A stretch of DNA of 31,898 nucleotides, from contig LARN01000022.1 in NCBI GenBank assembly GCA_000980495.1, positions 1 through 31,898 on the forward strand, in the 5' to 3' direction. Position 1 is the first letter of the stretch, and every line of letters starts with the position of its first letter. The notes beneath the pieces were generated by a model. It was given only the letters and a program-made list of their open reading frames with translations, made no database searches and was not told the DNA's origin. The position numbers and the translations under genes are program-made. This document shows, in pieces, positions 6,516 to 29,640 of this stretch. Source of the DNA: Acinetobacter sp. N54.MGS-139. Lineage in GTDB: Bacteria; Pseudomonadota; Gammaproteobacteria; Burkholderiales; Burkholderiaceae_F.

Positions 6516-7461
6516 TCATGACCTCTTCTTAGAACGAATAGAAAGTATGAATACCTGAGAAATCACCATCGCAATGCCGAGGCACTCGATCCATCCGAGT
6601 TTCAGGTTCATAAACATGATGCCGAAAACATAGGCAGAGGTGGGCTCGAGGCACACAACGAGACCGGCAGTGACCGGAGAAATGTACTTCAAACAAGCCA
6701 AATATAACCAGAATGCCGAGACCGTTCCTGCTAAAACGATATAAGTCAGGGCCAGCCAGGCCTTCGCATCTAACCCTTCAGCGGTAACAATCGGATTGGC
6801 GAGAAAAAGCCCGGCAATGCCTGAAGCCATCATGCCCCAGCTCGCTACTGGAACCACGCCCCAGAGGTCAATCAGAGGCTTGGGCTGAATGGAATAAATC
6901 GCCGAGAAAAAAGCACACATCATGCCCCAGAAAACGGCGTGCCAATTAAACTGGAAGGCAGAAAAGTCGCCTTTTGAAACGATTAAAAGAACACCGAAGA
7001 AGGCTAAGGCCCTCTTTTGCGGTAAAGCGTTTCTTTCCTCTTAAAAAGAGGTAGATTCCGGCAAGCAGCGGCGTCGTTGCTATGAAAATCGCTGCGGTTC
7101 CCGCATTTGAATAGTAAATAGCAATAAAGAACGTCAGATGCGCACAAAGAAGCTCAATGCCGCTGAGTGCAATACCGAGCGATCCCTTCAGAGACGAAAA
7201 AGCAGCCAACAAAGGCCGGCGCGATAAGTACAAATTCAAAATGACCAGAACAATTCCGGACAATAACAGCCTGAGAGAGGACAACGCCTGAGGCTCGGTT
7301 TTGGTGTTTTCAAAGATGTATTGAACACATACACCCATTGATCCCCAAAAGACGGATGCCAGTGAGGCAAGTAAAACGCCGTAAAGCGCCCGATTAATTT
7401 TTATCGGAGGTTCGGCATATTTTGTCGAGGTTTGAGTTTGAGACATTTTTTCTTTTGCCAT
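6516..7461 (-). pseudogene. EamA/DMT-family transporter, broken by a frameshift
   Basis: Two minus-strand frames (7461-6946 and the region down to 6516) together make a normal ten-helix drug/metabolite (EamA) exporter of about 314 residues. The first half runs from NRALYGVLLASLASVFWGSM to LFLRGKKRFTAKEGL. The frame must then shift by one base near 7004 (complement of CTAAGG) to continue as AFFGVLLIVSKGDFSAFQ and then WGMMCAFFSAIYSIQP. One extra base there explains everything; no other damage is visible. It is either a very recent inactivation or a sequencing error. CAGGA lies just before the first ATG. The substrate cannot be inferred. Confidence 0.85.
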
Positions 7462-16345: not shown

Positions 16346-17752
16346 TTACTTAACGAACTTCGGATGGATCAGGTTCTGGGTATTGAATGTGGCATCCCAT
16401 TCAGCCTGAGTCATCAGGTGCTGTTCGTCAACAACGATCTGGTGCAGAGACTTACCGGTTGTGTAGCCTTCCTTAGCGATGGCTGCGCACTTCTGATAGC
16501 CGAAATGCGGCTTCAGGAGTGTAACGATACCGATGGAGTTCATGACATAGTCTTTGCAGCGTTCGGTGTTGGCGGTAACGCCTTCAACCAACTTCTTACG
16601 CAATGTGTCGCAGGCGTTTGTCATTACCTTCATCTGTGTGTACAGAGCGTATGTAATGACCGGTTCCATGACGTTCAGTTCGAGCTGGCCGGCAGAAGCA
16701 GCAAGCATCACTGTTGTGTCGAGACCGATAGCAAGGAAGCTGGCCTGGTTGGCAACTTCAGCAGCAACCGGATTGACTTTACCCGGCATGATGGAAGAAC
16801 CCGGCTGGAGCTGAGGAAGGTTGATTTCCTTCAGGCCGCAGCGAGGACCGGAGGCAAGCAGACGAATGTCGTTGCAAACCTTAGTCATCTTGACAGCCAA
16901 GCCCTTGATAGCGGAGGACAGAGTCATGTAAGCGCCGCAGTCGCTGGTAGCAGCGATCAGGTCTTCACTGTTCTTGAAGTCGATGCCGGTCAGTTCGGCA
17001 AGGTTCTTAACAGCAAGTTCAGGATATCCCGGAGCAGCCGTAACAGTGGTACCGATAGCGGTAGCGCCGAGGTTGACGATCTTGAGGTGTTCCTGGGCAG
17101 CGCGCAGGTTTTCAATTTCGTCATTGATGGTGAAGCCCCAGCCGTGGAATTCCTGACCCAGAGTCATCGGGACAGCGTCCTGGAGGTGGGTACGGCCCAT
17201 CTTCAGAGTCTGATCGAATTCTTTAGCTTTGGCATAGAGTGCGTCGCGGAGTTCTTCAGCAGCCTTGATAAGGACGTTGGAGCGGAGGATGCAGCTCAGA
17301 TGGATAGCGGTCGGGTATGTGTCGTTCGTGGACTGACCGAAGTTTGCGTCGTTGTTCGGGTTGACGATGGAGTAGTCACCGAGCTTACCGCCGAGATGTT
17401 CGATAGCGAGGTTGGAGATAACTTCGTTAGCGTTCATGTTGGTAGAAGTACCGGCACCGCCCTGCAGCCAGTCAGTGATGAACTGGTCACGATATTTTTC
17501 AGTGTTGTTGATGAGCTGGTCGCAAGCCCAGATCATTGCGTCGGCAACTTCAGGTTTAACAACGCCGAGTTCCTTATTAGCCATCGCAGCTGCTTTCTTA
17601 ACATAAGCAAAGGCGATGATGAAGTAGATTTCTTGGTTGTTCTTTTCTTCAGTGATGAAGAAGTTTTCTTTGCCGCGAAGGGATTGAACGCCATAGTAAG
17701 CGTTGGCAGGAACTTCTAAGTCACCGATAAAATCATGTTCAATACGAGCCAT
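16346..17752 (-). CDS. aspA: aspartate ammonia-lyase, copy downstream of dcuA
   Basis: A 468-residue canonical aspartase (L-aspartate to fumarate plus ammonia). All key residues line up with Bacillus AspB at +1: Thr102 in GGAGTS, Ser141-Thr142-Asn143 in QSTND, Thr188-His189 in GRTHLQDA, the catalytic loop GSSIMPGKVNP at 318-328 with Ser319, and Lys325 and Asn327. GGAG lies 6 bases before the ATG. It differs from the copy at 19679-21085 in only three residues (Ala2/Thr2, Tyr/Phe in VIT(Y/F)ALY, Lys/Thr in DTLR(K/T)KL). It should supply fumarate to FrdAB. It is separated from dcuA by two terminators and so probably has its own promoter; a TATAAT lies on the minus strand at 17917-17912. Confidence 0.96.
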   Translation of the reverse strand: MARIEHDFIGDLEVPANAYYGVQSLRGKENFFITEEKNNQEIYFIIAFAYVKKAAAMANKELGVVKPEVADAMIWACDQLINNTEKYRDQFITDWLQGGAGTSTNMNANEVISNLAIEHLGGKLGDYSIVNPNNDANFGQSTNDTYPTAIHLSCILRSNVLIKAAEELRDALYAKAKEFDQTLKMGRTHLQDAVPMTLGQEFHGWGFTINDEIENLRAAQEHLKIVNLGATAIGTTVTAAPGYPELAVKNLAELTGIDFKNSEDLIAATSDCGAYMTLSSAIKGLAVKMTKVCNDIRLLASGPRCGLKEINLPQLQPGSSIMPGKVNPVAAEVANQASFLAIGLDTTVMLAASAGQLELNVMEPVITYALYTQMKVMTNACDTLRKKLVEGVTANTERCKDYVMNSIGIVTLLKPHFGYQKCAAIAKEGYTTGKSLHQIVVDEQHLMTQAEWDATFNTQNLIHPKFVK

Positions 17753-18172: not shown

Positions 18173-19507
18173 TTAGATGAAACCGCAGGCAACGAAACCG
18201 AAAGCGACGGAGAAGACAATCGCCAGAACGCCGGGGATGAAGAAGGAGTGGTTGAAGACCCACTTGCCGATGCGTGTTGTACCGGTGTCGTCCATCTGAA
18301 CAGCGCCGAGGAGAGTCGGGTATGTCGGAAGAACGAAGAGAGCGGAAACAGCGGCGAAGCAGGCAACCAGCATGTAAGCGTTATCCGGGTGAGCGGCTGT
18401 GATGCCGAGGGCGGCAACCACTGTCGGAGTAATCGCCTTGGCAGTAGCGGCCTGAGAGTACAGGAGCATAGCGGCTAAGAAGAAGACAACAGCGAGGAGA
18501 GCCGGATACTGGCTGATGGTTTCAGAAGCAAAAGCCTTGATCTGAGCGGTGTGACCGGAAACGAATGTATCACCGAGCCATGCAACACCGAGAACGCAGA
18601 TACAGGCAACCATACCGGATTTGAAAACGGATGTGGAAGCGATGTCGCCGAGTTTGATCTTGCAGAAGATCGTGATGAAAGCACCGACAGTAAGCATCAA
18701 GCTCATGATGGCTGCGTCACGTGCAACGATAACCGGTTTGATCAGGCCGATAGCCGGAGAAATAGCGGATGCGTAGCAGACGACTGCGATAACGCCGATG
18801 AGGAAGATCCAAACGGAAAGCTTGGCAGAGGAAGTGATCTTGATTTCCTGCATGCCGACAGGAGGCTTAACGAGACCTTCTTTAAGACGTTCCTGATAAA
18901 CCTGAGAGGTGCTGAGGTCCATCTTGCAGAACATCGTCATGATGAAAGCGGTGACCATGCAGCCGAGGAAAGTGGTAACAAGCCAAACAGCGATCAGAGT
19001 CGGATAGCTCCAGCCGAACGGTTCGAGAACGCCGGTCATGTAAATAACGGCAGCGGAAACCGGAGAAGCAGTAATAGCGATCTGAGAAGAGACCACAGCG
19101 ATAGAGAGCGGAACGCTCGGACGGATGTTCTGGCCTTTAGCAACTTCAACGATAACCGGGATCATCGAGAAAGCGGTGTGACCTGTACCAGCGAAAATCG
19201 TCAGAACATAGGTAACCAGCGGAGCCAGATAGTTGATGTATTTAGGATTCTTGTAGAGAATCTTTTCAGCGATGTAAACGAGGTAGTCCAAGCCGCCTGC
19301 GAGTTGCATAGCGGAAATGGCCGAGATCACGGATGCAATGATCAGGATCACGTCCCAAGGAATGTTACCCGGCTTCATGCCTAAACACAGACCGAGAATG
19401 AGAACACCGGCACCGCCGGCGTAGCCGATACCGATACCGCCGAGACGCACACCGACAAAGATCGCGCCGAGCAGAACGATAATCTGAAGAATAACCATGA
19501 TATCCAT
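18173..19507 (-). CDS. dcuA: anaerobic C4-dicarboxylate transporter of the Dcu (DcuA/DcuB) family
   Basis: A 444-residue inner-membrane carrier with 10 or more hydrophobic segments. Dcu carriers exchange aspartate, fumarate or malate for succinate during anaerobic growth. The motifs LGGIGIGYAGG, MQLAGGLDYLV, ASPVSAAVIYM, CICVLGVAWLGDTF, YSQAATAKA and AVQMDDTGTTRIGKWVFNH match DcuA better than DcuB. GGAGG is 4 bases before the ATG. It lies between two near-identical aspA genes, all on the minus strand, each with its own terminator. The context makes aspartate/succinate exchange feeding fumarate respiration the likely job. Confidence 0.93.
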   Translation of the reverse strand: MDIMVILQIIVLLGAIFVGVRLGGIGIGYAGGAGVLILGLCLGMKPGNIPWDVILIIASVISAISAMQLAGGLDYLVYIAEKILYKNPKYINYLAPLVTYVLTIFAGTGHTAFSMIPVIVEVAKGQNIRPSVPLSIAVVSSQIAITASPVSAAVIYMTGVLEPFGWSYPTLIAVWLVTTFLGCMVTAFIMTMFCKMDLSTSQVYQERLKEGLVKPPVGMQEIKITSSAKLSVWIFLIGVIAVVCYASAISPAIGLIKPVIVARDAAIMSLMLTVGAFITIFCKIKLGDIASTSVFKSGMVACICVLGVAWLGDTFVSGHTAQIKAFASETISQYPALLAVVFFLAAMLLYSQAATAKAITPTVVAALGITAAHPDNAYMLVACFAAVSALFVLPTYPTLLGAVQMDDTGTTRIGKWVFNHSFFIPGVLAIVFSVAFGFVACGFI

Positions 19508-19678: not shown

Positions 19679-21085
19679 TTACTTGACGAATTTCGGATGA
19701 ATCAAGTTCTGAGTATTGAATGTGGCATCCCATTCAGCCTGAGTCATCAGGTGCTGTTCATCAACAACGATCTGATGCAGAGACTTACCGGTTGTGTAGC
19801 CTTCCTTAGCGATAGCGGCGCACTTCTGGTAGCCGAAATGCGGCTTCAGGAGTGTAACGATACCGATGGAGTTCATGACATAGTCTTTGCAGCGTTCGGT
19901 GTTGGCGGTAACGCCTTCAACCAGTTTTGTACGCAGTGTGTCGCATGCGTTGGTCATAACTTTCATCTGTGTGTACAGAGCGAAAGTGATCACCGGTTCC
20001 ATAACGTTCAGTTCGAGCTGGCCGGCAGAAGCGGCAAGCATCACTGTTGTGTCGAGACCGATAGCAAGGAAGCTGGCCTGGTTGGCAACTTCAGCAGCAA
20101 CCGGATTGACTTTACCCGGCATGATGGAAGAACCCGGCTGGAGCTGAGGAAGGTTGATTTCCTTCAGGCCGCAGCGAGGACCGGAGGCAAGCAGACGAAT
20201 GTCGTTGCAAACCTTAGTCATCTTGACAGCCAAGCCCTTGATAGCGGAGGACAGAGTCATGTAAGCGCCGCAGTCGCTGGTAGCAGCGATCAGGTCTTCA
20301 CTGTTCTTGAAGTCGATGCCGGTCAGTTCGGCAAGGTTCTTAACAGCAAGTTCAGGATATCCCGGAGCAGCCGTAACAGTGGTACCGATAGCGGTAGCGC
20401 CGAGGTTGACGATCTTGAGGTGTTCCTGGGCAGCGCGCAGGTTTTCAATTTCGTCATTGATGGTGAAGCCCCAGCCGTGGAATTCCTGACCCAGAGTCAT
20501 CGGGACAGCGTCCTGGAGGTGGGTACGGCCCATCTTCAGAGTCTGATCGAATTCTTTAGCTTTGGCATAGAGTGCGTCGCGGAGTTCTTCAGCGGCCTTG
20601 ATAAGGACGTTGGAGCGGAGGATGCAGCTCAGATGGATAGCGGTCGGATAGGTGTCGTTTGTGGACTGACCGAAGTTAGCATCGTTGTTCGGGTTAACGA
20701 TGGAGTAATCGCCAAGCTTGCCGCCGAGATGTTCGATAGCAAGGTTGGAGATGACTTCGTTGGCATTCATGTTGGTAGAGGTACCGGCACCGCCCTGCAG
20801 CCAGTCAGTGATGAACTGGTCGCGATATTTTTCGGTGTTGTTGATGAGCTGGTCGCATGCCCAGATCATTGCGTCGGCAACTTCGGGTTTAACAACGCCG
20901 AGTTCTTTGTTCGCCATAGCAGCTGCTTTTTTGACATAAGCAAAAGCGATGATGAAGTAGATTTCCTGGTTGTTCTTTTCTTCAGTGATGAAGAAGTTTT
21001 CTTTACCGCGAAGAGACTGAACGCCGTAGTAGGCATTAGCCGGAACTTCTAAGTCGCCAATAAAATCGTGCTCAATACGAGTCAT
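19679..21085 (-). CDS. aspA: aspartate ammonia-lyase, copy upstream of dcuA
   Basis: A 468-residue aspartase with all catalytic residues (GGAGTS, QSTND, GRTHLQDA, GSSIMPGKVNP at 318-328), nearly identical to the copy at 16346-17752. AGGAG lies 6 bases before the ATG. At DNA level the central part (20034-20593) appears identical to 16701-17260, while both ends carry many silent differences. It is downstream of frdAB on the same strand; the upstream region now contains one copy of a 330-bp duplication made by an IS insertion. Expected product fumarate, the substrate of FrdAB. Confidence 0.96.
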   Translation of the reverse strand: MTRIEHDFIGDLEVPANAYYGVQSLRGKENFFITEEKNNQEIYFIIAFAYVKKAAAMANKELGVVKPEVADAMIWACDQLINNTEKYRDQFITDWLQGGAGTSTNMNANEVISNLAIEHLGGKLGDYSIVNPNNDANFGQSTNDTYPTAIHLSCILRSNVLIKAAEELRDALYAKAKEFDQTLKMGRTHLQDAVPMTLGQEFHGWGFTINDEIENLRAAQEHLKIVNLGATAIGTTVTAAPGYPELAVKNLAELTGIDFKNSEDLIAATSDCGAYMTLSSAIKGLAVKMTKVCNDIRLLASGPRCGLKEINLPQLQPGSSIMPGKVNPVAAEVANQASFLAIGLDTTVMLAASAGQLELNVMEPVITFALYTQMKVMTNACDTLRTKLVEGVTANTERCKDYVMNSIGIVTLLKPHFGYQKCAAIAKEGYTTGKSLHQIVVDEQHLMTQAEWDATFNTQNLIHPKFVK

Positions 21086-21117: not shown

Positions 21118-21446
21118 AAAAAGCGCCCTCTTTCGTCAGTCCGAAGAGCGTGGTCATACGATTGAGTGGCTGCAGGCAGTATCGTAACAAATTGTTTATT
21201 TGCATGGGAATCGGTACTGCTCAAACGGGGACTAAAGTAGCACAGTTCATGAAAATTCTCTAGAAAAATTTTCTGAATTGTCGATAAATCAAGGGTTTTT
21301 ACCTAGAACTTTCGTTTTAAGTATCATCACTTCACGGCATGTGTTGTTTCATTACCGCAACAAACAAAAACCCCTACCGATTAAGGTAGGGGTTTAGGTC
21401 TTGCTAGGACGTTTTGTTACAAAGTAGGATTAGTCGAGCTTGAGCT
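21118..21446. repeat. left copy of a ~330-bp direct repeat flanking the IS (target duplication)
   Basis: This stretch matches 23455-23781 with four substitutions (21123, 21148, 21354, 21361) and one 2-base indel (near 21266). It contains the aspA3 upstream region, a copy of the frdB terminator (21366-21395) and, at its right end, the last codons and stop of frdB (TTAGTCGAGCTTGAGCT, 21430-21446) as a non-functional remnant. One base at the junction is ambiguous because host and element both have C there. Confidence 0.93.
21363..21395 (-). terminator. duplicated copy of the frdB terminator
   Basis: AAACCCCTACC (21368-21378) pairs with GGTAGGGGTTT (21385-21395), followed on the minus strand by a T-run. 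Now separated from frdB by the IS, it may stop transcripts leaving the element toward aspA3. Confidence 0.75.
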
Positions 21447-21543
21447 CCCGAGTTTGATACTTGATTTTGGGCTTAACCACGCCCGCTCTGGGTTTAAGCC
21501 CAAAAAATTTTACCGTCAACGTAGCATAAATGTAGTACTATAT

Positions 21544-21551
21544 GGTATAAT
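21544..21551 (+). promoter_or_regulatory. extended -10 promoter of the transposase
   Basis: A TATAAT (21546-21551) is preceded by TGG, an extended -10 element, 28 bases before the transposase ATG. No convincing -35 box is seen. Confidence 0.5.
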
Positions 21552-21579
21552 TGAGCTATCTTGGTCATGGAGGGCGGCG

Positions 21580-23379
21580 ATGCCTCTGCACGTTTCAATT
21601 GTTTCGGTTAAGAATTACAAGTACATCCGTGTTTATTCAAGCTATCGAAATGAAAAGGGACAGCCCCGCTCCAGACTTATTGAAAATCACGGCCGGCTGG
21701 ATACCGCTCTCTCGAAGGATCCTCAATACGTTGAGAAATTAAAGGAACGTATTGCCAAAGAAAATCAGCTTGAGGCGAGCACTAAGGCTCAAGAAGTAGA
21801 AAAACAAGCCAAAGAGAGAATGGATAAGCTCTCCCAAGCAGCCCAAGGACTCAACGACAAACCCGGATGTTTTAAGACTTACAACGTCGGCGCGGCACTT
21901 ATCAGAAAAGTCTGGTCTGACTTGAAGCTTCCTGAGATGTTCAGGCATTTACAGCGAAGCAGAAAAATTGGGTATTCGTATGATCAGACGGCTTATTTGC
22001 TGACAGAGCAAAGACTGCTGCAGCCGGCGAGCAAGTTGAGAAGCTTCGCCAATCGATCCGGAAGCATTATTGATCACGCAAAAGTCGATCACCTGGAAGA
22101 TTTATATAAAGTTCTGGATCTTCTCCAAGAAGATAAGGCCACCATCGTGAGGCATCTGAACCGAGAAATCCAGAAGAAAACCAAGAGAAAGGTAACGGCA
22201 GCCTTTTACGACGTAACCACCTATTCCTTCGAGAGTCGCTGCGTATCTGACTACAAAGACTTCGGCATCAGCAAAGATCATAAGGTCAATGAAGTTCAAG
22301 TTGTTCTTGGGTTGATGATGGACGAAAACGGCATACCTATCGACTACGAGCTTTTTAACGGCAATACCAACGAGTTCGGAACAATGGTTCCGCTCATAGA
22401 GAAAATAAAGAAAACTTATCACCTCAAGCAGCTCATCGTCGTAGCCGACCGCGGTCTTAACAGCTGTCAGAATCTGTTTGATCTTAAAGACATCGGCTGT
22501 GATTTTGTTATTGCTCAAAAATTCAGAACAACCTCCGAGCACTTGAAAAAGCAAATTCTGGACCAAGAAAACTGGCAGGACTTCGTTTACAACGAAGAAG
22601 GCGCAGAGGTCTGCCGATACAAGACGTTAGACGTAACGCAAGAGCTATACGAGATGAGAAAAAGCCCGACGACGCATCGTAATTACAAGACGTCAAATGT
22701 CCTTGGCACTATGAATCTCAAATGGGTTGTCTCACATAGTCCCTCAAGAGCCGCAAAAGATAAAGCAGATCGAGACAGGGCCATAGAAAAAGCCAAGCAG
22801 GCGGTCGCGGATCCAAGCCGACTTAAAAACAGGGGTTACAAGTCTCTCGTCAAAGTGCCGAAAGGCAAAGGCTCGCCCACGATTAATTGGGAGAAGATCA
22901 ACGAACAGGCGAAATGGGACGGTTATTACGTAATCTGTACTAATTTAAACATATCTCCGCATGATGCTACTGCGATCTATCGAAAGTTATGGCAAATAGA
23001 AGACTGCTTCAGAGTAAGCAAGACATACCTCGAGGCTCGTCCCTGCTTTGTATGGACCGATCCTCACATCTACGGTCACTTTCTGAGCTGCTTTATCAGC
23101 CTGGTCATTGAAAAGTACATGCTTTATACCTTTAAGAACGAACTGGGCAAAGAAGAGATAACACACGAGAAGATGCTGGAAGCCTTGAGGACAGCTGAGG
23201 TTGTCTATGACGATATCAACCCTCAGGTACCGTTCTATATGAGGCTTTATGAGGCCGGTTTATTTGATCGGATGTCGGCACTGTTTAGTTTGGAAGTCCT
23301 TAACCGAGTTGAGGTCCCGTCAAGCTTAAGGAGGAAACTGCATTTACCACTGACAAAGGTTGTAGCTACACCGACGTAA
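21580..23379 (+). CDS. IS1634-family (IS4-like) DDE transposase
   Basis: A 599-residue transposase that cuts and joins the element's ends. The ATG at 21580 is chosen because GGAGG lies 7 bases before it; an upstream in-frame start would lie inside the terminal repeat. Catalytic residues are Asp211 in FYDVTTYSFES, Asp290 in VVADRGLNS and Glu474 in YRKLWQIEDCFRVSK, the Y-x2-R-x3-E-x6-K-like signature of the IS4 superfamily, followed by LEARPCFVWTD as in IS1634. The N-terminal region (KNYKYIRVYSSYRNEKGQPR) and the charged helix at about 45-90 are family-typical. No frameshift or stop is seen, so it is probably functional. Confidence 0.95.
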   Translation: MPLHVSIVSVKNYKYIRVYSSYRNEKGQPRSRLIENHGRLDTALSKDPQYVEKLKERIAKENQLEASTKAQEVEKQAKERMDKLSQAAQGLNDKPGCFKTYNVGAALIRKVWSDLKLPEMFRHLQRSRKIGYSYDQTAYLLTEQRLLQPASKLRSFANRSGSIIDHAKVDHLEDLYKVLDLLQEDKATIVRHLNREIQKKTKRKVTAAFYDVTTYSFESRCVSDYKDFGISKDHKVNEVQVVLGLMMDENGIPIDYELFNGNTNEFGTMVPLIEKIKKTYHLKQLIVVADRGLNSCQNLFDLKDIGCDFVIAQKFRTTSEHLKKQILDQENWQDFVYNEEGAEVCRYKTLDVTQELYEMRKSPTTHRNYKTSNVLGTMNLKWVVSHSPSRAAKDKADRDRAIEKAKQAVADPSRLKNRGYKSLVKVPKGKGSPTINWEKINEQAKWDGYYVICTNLNISPHDATAIYRKLWQIEDCFRVSKTYLEARPCFVWTDPHIYGHFLSCFISLVIEKYMLYTFKNELGKEEITHEKMLEALRTAEVVYDDINPQVPFYMRLYEAGLFDRMSALFSLEVLNRVEVPSSLRRKLHLPLTKVVATPT

Positions 23380-23454
23380 ATTTTAAAATTCTGAGAAGCC
23401 CGATGGATTCTAGCTTCTCAATGGATAAAGCCAGAATCCACTACCAAACTCGGG

Positions 23455-23781
23455 AAAAACCGCCCTCTTTCGTCAGTCCGAAGACCGTGGTCATACGATT
23501 GAGTGGCTGCAGGCAGTATCGTAACAAATTGTTTATTTGCATGGGAATCGGTACTGCTCAAACGGGGACTAAAGTAGCACAGTTCATGAAAATTCTCTAA
23601 AAATTTTCTGAATTGTCGATAAATCAAGGGTTTTTACCTAGAACTTTCGTTTTAAGTATCATCACTTCACGGCATGTGTTGTTTCATTGCCGCAATAAAC
23701 AAAAACCCCTACCGATTAAGGTAGGGGTTTAGGTCTTGCTAGGACGTTTTGTTACAAAGTAGGATTAGTCGAGCTTGAGCT
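23455..23781. repeat. right copy of the ~330-bp direct repeat (target duplication)
   Basis: Near-identical to 21118-21446. This copy holds the working frdB 3' end (stop at 23765) and terminator. Together with 23380-23454, the stretch between transposase and frdB has no gene. Confidence 0.93.
23701..23730 (-). terminator. terminator of frdB
   Basis: AAACCCCTACC (23703-23713) pairs with GGTAGGGGTTT (23720-23730) around a 6-base loop. On the minus strand the stem is followed by TTTTTG. It lies about 35 bases after the frdB stop. Confidence 0.85.
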
Positions 23782-28035: not shown

Positions 28036-28827
28036 TTAGAAAGCCGGTACTACGGCTCCGTTATATTTTTCCTCAATAAACTTCTTAACTTCGGGCGAAT
28101 GAAGAGAGCTCATCAATTCCTTAATGGCAGGTTTGTTTTCGTTCCCTGCTCTCACAGCCACAACGTTTGCGTAAGGAGAATCTTTGGCTTCAATGGCAAT
28201 CGCGTCTTTTGTGGGGTTCAAATTAGCGCCGAGGGCATAATTAGAATTGATGACGGCAGCATCTAAATCGTCCAAAGCTCTTGGCAGTGTTGCAGCTTCC
28301 ACTTCGACGATACGGATTCTCTTAGGATTATCGATGATATCCAGAGGAGTTCCGTTCACACCGACACCGTCTTTCATTTTGATCAAACCGGCAGCAGCCA
28401 GAACCTGAAGTGCTCTTCCGCCGTTCGTCGGGTCATTCGGAATGGCGACGGAGGCGCCTTTTTTCAGATCAGCCAAATTCTTTACTTTCTTAGAGTAAAC
28501 GCCCATCGGCTCGATATGGACTGCTCCGGCAGACACCAGATTCAAGCGATGATCTTTCGAGAAAGCGTCTAAATAAGGAAGATGCTGGAAGAAGTTGGCA
28601 TCCAAATCTTTGTCAGAAAGGGCCAAGTTCGGCTGAACATAATCAGAGAACTCAATGATCTTGAGGTCAATGCCCTTTTTAGCAAGTTCGGGCTGCACGA
28701 CCTTAAGAATATCTGCGTGCGGCACCGGGGAAGCCCCGATCTTTAAAGTTTCTGCTGCGTTTGCCGTTCCGAAAAAGCAGAAAGCGGCGCTGAGCGCGGC
28801 GGTAATCAAGAAATTGCGTTTATTCAT
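28036..28827 (-). CDS. MetQ/NlpA-family substrate-binding protein, second copy
   Basis: A 263-residue periplasmic binding protein of the NlpA/MetQ family, which captures D/L-methionine (or related ligands) for the MetNI ABC transporter. It has a Sec signal with AlaXAla-type cleavage (TANA before AETLKIGASP) and no lipobox Cys, unlike many MetQ. Family stretches include FSDYVQPNLALSDKDLDANF, IPNDPTNGGRAL, VEVEAATLPRALDD, AVINSNYAL and SPYANVVAVR. It is the downstream gene of a tandem pair (18 bases between genes) that arose by duplication and has diverged. No metN or metI is in the window. Substrate not certain. Confidence 0.88.
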   Translation of the reverse strand: MNKRNFLITAALSAAFCFFGTANAAETLKIGASPVPHADILKVVQPELAKKGIDLKIIEFSDYVQPNLALSDKDLDANFFQHLPYLDAFSKDHRLNLVSAGAVHIEPMGVYSKKVKNLADLKKGASVAIPNDPTNGGRALQVLAAAGLIKMKDGVGVNGTPLDIIDNPKRIRIVEVEAATLPRALDDLDAAVINSNYALGANLNPTKDAIAIEAKDSPYANVVAVRAGNENKPAIKELMSSLHSPEVKKFIEEKYNGAVVPAF

Positions 28828-28845: not shown

Positions 28846-29640
28846 TTAGAAGGATGGAATCAAAGATCCTTTGTAGTGTTCAAGTATGAATTCTTTTACT
28901 TCGGGCGTGTGAAGTGCGTTGTTTAATTCAACAAGTTCCGGACGATTGTCACCGGTACGGATGGCAACCATGTTTGCATAGGGAGAATCTTTGCTTTCAA
29001 TGAGGAGCGAGTCTTTGACAGGATTAAGACCGGCCGGCAGTGCATAAGTTTGGTTAATCACGGCAGCGCGGGCATCATCGAGCGTTCTCGGCAGAGTAGC
29101 TGCTTCAACTTCCATGATTCTTAATCTAAGCGGATTATCAATGATGTCTTCGACCGTTGCAGCATGTCCTACACCTTCTTTAAGCTTTAAGAGGTCTGCT
29201 CCGGCAAGAAGCTGCAGCGCTCTGCCGCCGTTGGTCGGATCGTTAGGAATCGTGATGGTGTCGCCCTTCTTAAGCTCTTTCACATCTTTAATCTTTTTCG
29301 AGTAAAGAGCGATCGGAGCAATAAAAATTCCGGGCAAAGCCGTCAGTTTAAGGCCTCTATCCTGGCAGAACTTATCCATGAAAGGCTTGTGCTGGAAAAG
29401 ATTTGCATCAATTTCTTTATCGGCCAAAGCTAAATTCGGCTGGATATAGTCGGTAAATTCGATGATCTTGAGATTGATGCCTTTTTTGGCAAGGGCAGGT
29501 TTTACGAACTCAAGGATGTCACCTGTTACAAGGGGAGAAGCTCCGACTTTGAGGGTAACAGGTTCAGTTGCAAATGCAGGGAGCAAAGATGAAAAAAGTG
29601 CCCCGGCGGTTAAGCATTTAATTAATTGACGGCGTTGCAT
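28846..29640 (-). CDS. MetQ/NlpA-family substrate-binding protein, first copy
   Basis: A 264-residue paralogue of the next gene, with the same architecture: signal peptide (MQRRQLIKCLTAGALFSSLL, cleavage after AFA), FTDYIQPNLALADKEIDANL, IPNDPTNGGRAL, VEVEAATLPRTLDD, AVINQTYAL and SPYANMVAIR. The start MQRRQLIK has a twin-Arg-like pair but no full Tat motif. The only early Cys is inside the signal core, so it is probably a free periplasmic protein. AGGAG lies about 8 bases before the ATG. First gene of the pair; its upstream region is long and AT-rich. The two copies may bind different ligands. Confidence 0.88.
   Translation of the reverse strand: MQRRQLIKCLTAGALFSSLLPAFATEPVTLKVGASPLVTGDILEFVKPALAKKGINLKIIEFTDYIQPNLALADKEIDANLFQHKPFMDKFCQDRGLKLTALPGIFIAPIALYSKKIKDVKELKKGDTITIPNDPTNGGRALQLLAGADLLKLKEGVGHAATVEDIIDNPLRLRIMEVEAATLPRTLDDARAAVINQTYALPAGLNPVKDSLLIESKDSPYANMVAIRTGDNRPELVELNNALHTPEVKEFILEHYKGSLIPSF

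What the first reader, a model, noticed from the sequence alone, without database searches (positions are those of the whole stretch)
21118..23781. IS1634-family element flanked by a ~330-bp target duplication
The IS (21447-23454) lies between two direct copies of about 330 bp of host DNA (left 21118-21446, right 23455-23781) that differ by four substitutions and one 2-base indel. The repeats are host sequence: they contain the frdB terminator and end inside the frdB coding sequence. Ordinary IS elements duplicate 2-14 bp. The IS1634 family (IS1634 of Mycoplasma mycoides, IS1549 of Mycobacterium) is known for long, variable-length repeats, and the transposase belongs to that family. A betaproteobacterial case with repeats this long is a useful example of staggered cuts hundreds of bases apart.
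Basis: partly seen in the sequence, partly recalled or inferred. Interest (0 to 1): 0.8.

Follow-up and report, generated by a model that had tools for sequence, protein, structure and literature searches.

The report
Insertion element with long target duplication
A small jumping gene sits between two copies of the same 329 bases of host DNA, and its relatives leave similarly long and variable duplications, apparently because each of its two ends chooses its own landing spot.

Summary
Confirmed: a 2,008-bp IS (21447-23454) lies exactly between direct repeats of 329 and 327 bp (four substitutions, one 2-base gap). It is an IS1634-family element (NF033559, E 1e-99). The repeat is a target duplication: the nearest held relative, G001, lacks the IS and has each part of the block once, although another repeated element splits it there. 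For a related IS in G069, 4 of 4 tested insertions have an empty site in G004 with the block once.

The wider result was not in the literature I could search. Long repeats abut 63 of 83 relatives outside, and 0 of 15 inside, a group with 4-8-bp repeats (one row re-filed); one well-supported branch separates the groups. In 54 measured copies from nine phyla lengths run from 21 to 808 bp, fit an exponential and show no helical phase, and both junctions carry the same one-sided A-R-A-A-A site just inside the repeat. I infer that the two IS ends join opposite strands at separately chosen sites, probably one after the other. The element is a new member of a known kind; the rule makes an old puzzle testable.

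The parts
21118..21446 (.). left copy of the direct repeat (329 bp of host DNA upstream of aspA, with the frdB terminator and the last 17 bases of frdB)
21447..23454 (+). IS1634-family insertion sequence, 2,008 bp
   Evidence: boundaries from inverted ends and repeat edges
21447..21460 (+). left terminal inverted repeat (first 14 bases)
   Evidence: 12 of 14 match
23441..23454 (-). right terminal inverted repeat (last 14 bases)
21580..23379 (+). transposase, 599 aa from the ATG at 21580 (the ORF list starts it at a TTG, 21454)
   Evidence: NF033559 334.8 bits against a cut-off of 100; PF01609; Tn5-like fold
22210..22212 (+). codon of first aligned catalytic Asp (D211)
   Evidence: D in 66 of 66 aligned transposases
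22447..22449 (+). codon of second aligned catalytic Asp (D290)
   Evidence: D in 66 of 66
22999..23001 (+). codon of aligned catalytic Glu (E474)
   Evidence: E in 66 of 66
23455..23781 (.). right copy of the direct repeat (327 bp)
23455..23460 (+). site joined to the right IS end, AAAAAC here (AAAAAG in the left copy, 21118-21123)
   Evidence: fits the A-R-A-A-A junction site
21441..21446 (-). site joined to the left IS end, AGCTCA on the minus strand: A-R at +1/+2 but not A-rich after that
21368..21395 (-). copy of the frdB terminator hairpin carried into the left repeat
23703..23730 (-). frdB terminator hairpin in the right repeat

Best explanation
An IS1634-family IS inserted between aspA and frdB and duplicated 329 bp of target DNA. 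SHOWN: the parts of the block are single in the IS-free relative and doubled here; four insertions of a related IS have matching empty sites; repeat lengths vary freely; both junctions carry the same one-sided site, 5'-A-R-A-A-A, which starts at the joined base and lies inside the repeat. INFERRED: the 3'-OH of each IS end attacks its own such site, one on each target strand, and the two attacks are not held at a fixed spacing as in ordinary DDE transposition. The strands between the sites separate and are copied, which turns the interval into two repeats. The order I think most economical is sequential: the first joining frees a target 3'-OH that can prime displacement synthesis, and the second end joins the other strand after a random time.
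For: Family. Window duplication: both copies share six substitutions against G001 and each has private changes; G001 lacks the IS and has each part of the block once. Empty sites: 4 of 4 tested G069 copies in G004, block 360/196/476/161 bp against repeats 362/196/476/161. Generality: 63 of 83 against 0 of 15, and 0 of 50 pseudo-elements (one row re-filed). Junction site: A at +1 in 43 and 40 of 54, A/G at +2 in 85% and 88%; holds when weighted over 28 lineages and separately in 25 and 29 copies. Lengths: exponential not rejected (p 0.72), no 10.5-bp phase (p 0.27). Ends choose independently (rank correlation -0.05).
Against: Fifteen of the 83 copies have no repeat that I could find or explain. 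Of the four empty sites, one (L064) has T at +1 at both ends. A log-normal fits the lengths as well as an exponential; a 10.6-bp period gives p 0.065. Equally good sites inside the repeat are not avoided (p 0.54), and there is no orientation bias against GC skew (28 of 54), so no direct sign of a link with replication. The copying step and the order of events are not tested. The best empty sites are for a 53%-identical IS, not for the window's IS itself.
Confidence: 0.75

Rival explanations
1. Simultaneous wide stagger: one synaptic complex holds both IS ends and attacks two sites of looped double-stranded target DNA at once; the interval is then unwound and filled in.
For: Also gives target duplication and a site at each end; needs no polymerase between the two steps. 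Nothing here tests timing.
Against: 18 of 54 repeats are under 100 bp, where looping of stiff DNA should be rare and phased to the helix, yet no phase is seen. DNA stiffness is general knowledge, not tested here.
Confidence: 0.17
2. Recombination or a pre-existing duplication: the IS landed beside an older tandem repeat, or two IS copies inserted some 330 bp apart recombined between sister chromosomes.
For: IS copies of this group do recombine: L084 and L085 have exchanged repeat partners. The window's own empty site is not intact in G001.
Against: Block single in G001 and in 4 of 4 empty sites; the IS fits the repeat edges exactly at dozens of unrelated places.
Confidence: 0.04
3. Joining to two sister duplexes: one IS end inserts into each sister chromosome at different places, so that the interval is doubled on the product.
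For: Explains free spacing and separate sites.
Against: It should give deletions about as often as duplications. In the sets with several complete copies per genome that I inspected, all showed duplications: 18 of 18 in Turicimonas (two of them exchanged, one nested), 5 of 5 of group B in G069, 7 of 7 in Syntrophomonas. Harmful deletions may be lost by selection, and the fifteen unexplained copies could hide some.
Confidence: 0.03
4. Assembly artefact: the doubled block was made by the assembler.
For: The window's source assembly could not be inspected.
Against: The two window copies have diverged; the pattern recurs in few-contig genomes, complete plasmids and MAGs, and agrees with what is reported for IS1634 and IS1549 (PMC2266710).
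Confidence: 0.01

Closest known systems
IS1634 (Mycoplasma mycoides) and IS1549 (Mycobacterium smegmatis)
   Same: Same IS family by profile; long repeats of variable length, 8-514 bp according to PMC2266710 (passages).
   Different: Their sequences were not compared here; the original papers are not held. No junction site or length law is given in the passages I saw.
Turicimonas muris YL45 group A element (G083; L055-L060)
   Same: 77% identical transposase; long repeats of 51, 87, 99, 116 and 432 bp, plus 194 in a nested copy.
   Different: Different host and several copies; the window element is 2,008 bp against 2,020 bp (one copy 2,019).
Short-repeat IS1634 members (ISPfe2, ISGka5, ISAzo6-like)
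   Same: Same family, same catalytic triad.
   Different: Repeats of 6 bp reported for ISPfe2 and ISGka5; 6 bp scored here for the ISAzo6-like copy L196; separated from all long-repeat rows by one branch.
IS1630 (Mycoplasma fermentans)
   Same: Duplications of variable length: 16, 23, 25 and 26 bp (PMC3317919, passages).
   Different: Described there as IS30-type, targeting inverted repeats; shorter repeats.
Tn5 transposase
   Different: 13% identity over the match; a fixed 9-bp duplication (recalled; the IS50 subgroup is listed at 8-9 bp in PMC2266710).

Membership tests
IS1634 family | Transposase of the IS1634 type | tested here: met
   NF033559 E 1e-99, 334.8 bits against a cut-off of 100; other IS families at 35 bits or less
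IS1634 family | DDE catalytic triad | tested here: met
   D211, D290, E474 aligned with D, D, E in 66 of 66 transposases
IS1634 family | Ends of the form C-----YT (PMC2266710) | tested here: met
   CCCGAGTT at both ends
IS1634 family | Size 1,500-2,000 bp (typical, PMC2266710) | tested here: met
   2,008 bp, at the upper edge
IS1634 family | Repeats of 5-6 bp (most listed members) or long and variable (IS1634, IS1549) | tested here: met
   329/327 bp: the second kind, not the first
Long-repeat group of IS1634 transposases | Lies on the long-repeat side of the tree | tested here: met
   W groups with L056, L062, L063; the short group of 13 rows is split off with 100/99
Long-repeat group of IS1634 transposases | A-R-A-A-A site just inside the repeat at both ends | tested here: met
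   AAAAAG/C at one end; AGCTCA at the other, which has A-R but no A-run
Long-repeat group of IS1634 transposases | Single block in the empty site of this very insertion | tested here: inconclusive
   G001 has each part once but interrupted by another repeated element
IS4 family (Tn5, IS50, IS10) | Constant repeats of 7-13 bp | tested here: not met
   329/327 bp; NF033592 IS4 profile 34.9 bits against a cut-off of 115
IS1634 family | Transposition activity | not testable with these tools
   Only sequence is available

The most novel reading that the evidence does not exclude
Target joining in this large group of DDE transposases is sequential, not concerted: the first IS end joins one strand, the freed target 3'-OH primes strand-displacement synthesis, and the second end joins the opposite strand at an A-rich site at a random later moment. 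Repeat length then records how far DNA was copied between the two chemical steps, a mode closer to target-primed retrotransposons than to Tn5.
Probability: 0.35. Interest if true: 0.85.

Novelty: new member of a known kind. Interest (0 to 1): 0.62.

Why it matters
Target duplication length is normally a fixed property of a transposase. PMC2266710 (2008) treats the long repeats of IS1634 and IS1549 as two exceptions for which no mechanism had been proposed (passages). Here long repeats are the usual state of a group of transposases seen in nine phyla among the measured copies, with a shared site at each end and free spacing. That turns a curiosity into a rule with predictions that laboratory strains can test. 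It also matters for hosts: such repeats can leave a whole copy of the interrupted gene or operon end beside the IS, as for frdB and the region upstream of aspA here, and they offer homology for exact removal of the IS (inferred).

Tried and rejected
Looked for and not found. DNA hits to the window IS: none in PLSDB plasmids; two weak partial matches in 41 related genomes. The first protein pattern scans of genome and viral contigs confirmed no relative; the alignment query did. Class-wide search: 3 of 377 genomes. Helical phasing, orientation against GC skew (a crude local measure) and depletion of unused sites gave no signal. No alignment column met my thresholds for separating the long from the short group, and the D-to-E spacings overlap. 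A C-terminal Q-x-x-L-F-like clamp motif, reported in PMC4549789 for another IS1634 member, is visible by eye in several short-group tails and a few long-group ones and does not separate the groups. No solved structure matches by sequence: two hits at E 0.24 and 0.95.

Dropped or corrected rows. Of the 79 loci, 15 were not scanned: eleven repeat Turicimonas copies already held as G083 and four (L130, L156, L176, L181) have a short left flank. Of 65 copies given to the boundary script, 9 had no CC...GG ends and 2 more (L128, L140) had no credible inverted ends, which leaves 54. In one search, 21 copies with under 1 kb of flank and one duplicate (L184) were left out, and L210 was misfiled: the printed 63 of 84 and 0 of 14 become 63 of 83 and 0 of 15. 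Thirteen of the 15 short-group copies are in the tree; L195 and L201 were assigned to it beforehand. The 83 are all other copies, not all of them in the tree; among the 63 the repeats at L147 and L175 do not meet a recognised IS end. Three transposases were too short in one open frame for the first tree (L157, L189, L197). L190 was first scored as 7 bp and entered in both trees as SHORT7; one search shows 13-14 bp. The window's tree label LONG330 stands for 329/327.

Rejected as the main route: pre-existing tandem duplication, assembly artefact, joining to two sister duplexes (see rivals).

Papers. PMC2266710, PMC3281130, PMC3053259, PMC8024623, PMC3317919 and PMC8944449 were seen as passages found by terms; PMC4549789 as abstract and passages; other titles in listings only. 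The original IS1634 and IS1549 papers were not seen. Searches for prior work. They cover only openly licensed papers, so earlier work on the mechanism may exist.

Full report

IS IT A TARGET DUPLICATION? The window's own assembly is not held. The nearest held genome, G001 (22% of the window's sampled 31-letter words), has no match to the IS. It has the first part of the block once, next to aspA, and the rest once, next to frdB. Both contigs leave the block at the same place (window 21364/21365) and stop 30 and 26 bases later. The end of one of them recurs at 10 places in G001, at least seven of them at contig ends, so another repeated element, probably an IS, sits there. The two window copies share six substitutions against G001, and each has private changes: three substitutions on the left; one substitution and the 2-base deletion on the right. 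They therefore come from one ancestor after the split from G001.

EMPTY SITES. G069 carries five full copies of an IS with a 53%-identical transposase. I tested four in its relative G004 and all four sites are empty, with flanks contiguous and the repeat present once: block 360, 196, 476 and 161 bp against repeats of 362, 196, 476 and 161. The fifth (L066, 31 bp) was not tested. On an Aliarcobacter plasmid a 680-bp repeat that includes most of a Crp/Fnr gene flanks the IS; two Arcobacter plasmids without the IS at this place, probably near-identical to each other, have the comparable 590 bp once.

HOW GENERAL IS IT? 27 of 67 genomes of the window's family have a transposase match. Loci of other phyla came (79 distinct loci kept out of 554 confirmed candidates, themselves a capped list), and 22 plasmid regions. 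Comparing left with right flank, an abutting repeat of 20 bp or more is found in 63 of 83 copies outside the short group with at least 1 kb on both sides, in 0 of 15 copies of the short group, and around 0 of 50 pseudo-elements (one row re-filed). Of the 20 without, L055 and L093 have the repeat beyond further inserted DNA, L084 and L085 have exchanged partners (1,318 and 726 bp, 100% identical) and L190 has 13-14 bp; fifteen are unexplained, at least two of them incomplete copies (L083, L157). The 54 measured copies come from nine phyla: Pseudomonadota, Bacillota, Thermotogota, Synergistota, Bacteroidota, Ignavibacteriota, Campylobacterota, Mycoplasmatota and Actinomycetota.

FAMILY TREE. In a tree of 66 transposases (58 different), 13 rows are cut off from all others with support 100/99. 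They hold eight elements scored here at 4-8 bp, mostly 5-6, and five of unknown length. All 46 rows labelled long lie on the other side, with L190 and six rows of unknown length. A second tree of 57 rows that includes the Mycoplasmopsis element keeps this split. The root is a midpoint for drawing only, so which state is older is open.

LENGTHS. Exact lengths (repeat period minus IS length) were obtained for 54 of 65 copies: 21 to 808 bp, median 153, mean 221, standard deviation 204, 18 under 100 bp, six over 514. An exponential above the minimum is not rejected (p 0.72); a log-normal fits at least as well. There is no phase at 10.5 bp (p 0.27; 10.6 gives 0.065). Within Turicimonas four element groups differ in length (Kruskal p 0.027; A against C p 0.019; few values, three of them from nested or exchanged copies), which suggests that the element rather than the host sets the scale.

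THE JUNCTIONS. Reading from each IS end into the repeat, base +1 is A in 43 of 54 (right end) and 40 of 54 (left end), base +2 is A or G in 85% and 88%, and +3 to +5 are 46-57% A. Outside the repeat, positions are near background apart from slight preferences such as G at -1 of the left-end site, and nothing stands out beyond +6. The site survives weighting by 28 lineages (+1 A 74% and 67%) and appears separately in 25 copies of the window's family and in 29 others. In DDE chemistry the 3'-OH of the IS joins the 5' end of the cut target strand (established), so each end is joined to this site on its own strand. In the four empty sites the site was there before insertion at both ends in three (A-R at each); the fourth, L064, has T at both. 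The quality of the two sites is uncorrelated between ends.

MECHANISM. The spacing between the two joinings is not fixed, while each joining has its own local preference. I prefer a sequential scheme: one end joins first, the freed target 3'-OH is extended with strand displacement, and the second end joins the other strand later. It predicts duplication rather than deletion, a near-exponential spread and no helical phase. The copying step is inference. Against a simple version, equally good sites inside the repeat are not avoided, and no orientation bias points to replication forks. PMC4549789 (abstract and passages) reports that an IS1634 transposase of Acidiphilium binds the beta sliding clamp; a link to DNA synthesis is therefore possible but not shown for this group.

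WHAT IS KNOWN. PMC2266710 (passages) gives 5-6 bp as typical for the family, names IS1634 and IS1549 as exceptions with 8-514 bp and says that no mechanistic model had been proposed. ISPfe2 and ISGka5 make 6 bp. Searches listed no later survey or model in the openly licensed library. The element is a new member of a known kind; the breadth of the long-repeat group and its shared junction site are what I did not find described.

HOST EFFECT. The right repeat keeps the end of frdB and its terminator, and the left repeat keeps the DNA upstream of aspA, so neither neighbour is cut. This is read from sequence, not from expression.

Noticed in passing
16346-17752 and 19679-21085 (minus strand): Two nearly identical aspA-like genes (3 of 469 residues and 66 of 1,407 bases differ) flank a transporter-like gene at 18173-19507; a more distant aspA-like gene lies at 518-1993.
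   Followed up: partly
L003:1-31 and L021:1-27 (G001): In G001 a different repeated element interrupts the same aspA-frdB spacer beside the frdB terminator; its end recurs at 10 places. The spacer has been hit twice.
   Followed up: partly
L084 and L085 (Turicimonas muris YL45, G083): Two IS copies have exchanged flanking-repeat partners (1,318 and 726 bp), the mark of recombination between IS copies.
   Followed up: partly
6516-6923 and 6946-7461 (minus strand): Two neighbouring frames look like halves of one EamA/DMT-type transporter (by eye), perhaps a frameshift.
   Followed up: no
28036-28827 and 28846-29640 (minus strand): Two tandem genes that look like MetQ-type methionine-binding lipoproteins (by eye).
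   Followed up: no
L119 and L141, right repeat start: The first few bases of the right repeat differ from the left copy although the rest is identical; L119 has about five such bases.
   Followed up: no
L069, L070, L126, L139, L092, L209: Copies with recognisable inverted ends but no direct repeat found; L069 still has A-rich sites at both junctions. They could be deletion-type insertions or rearranged copies.
   Followed up: partly
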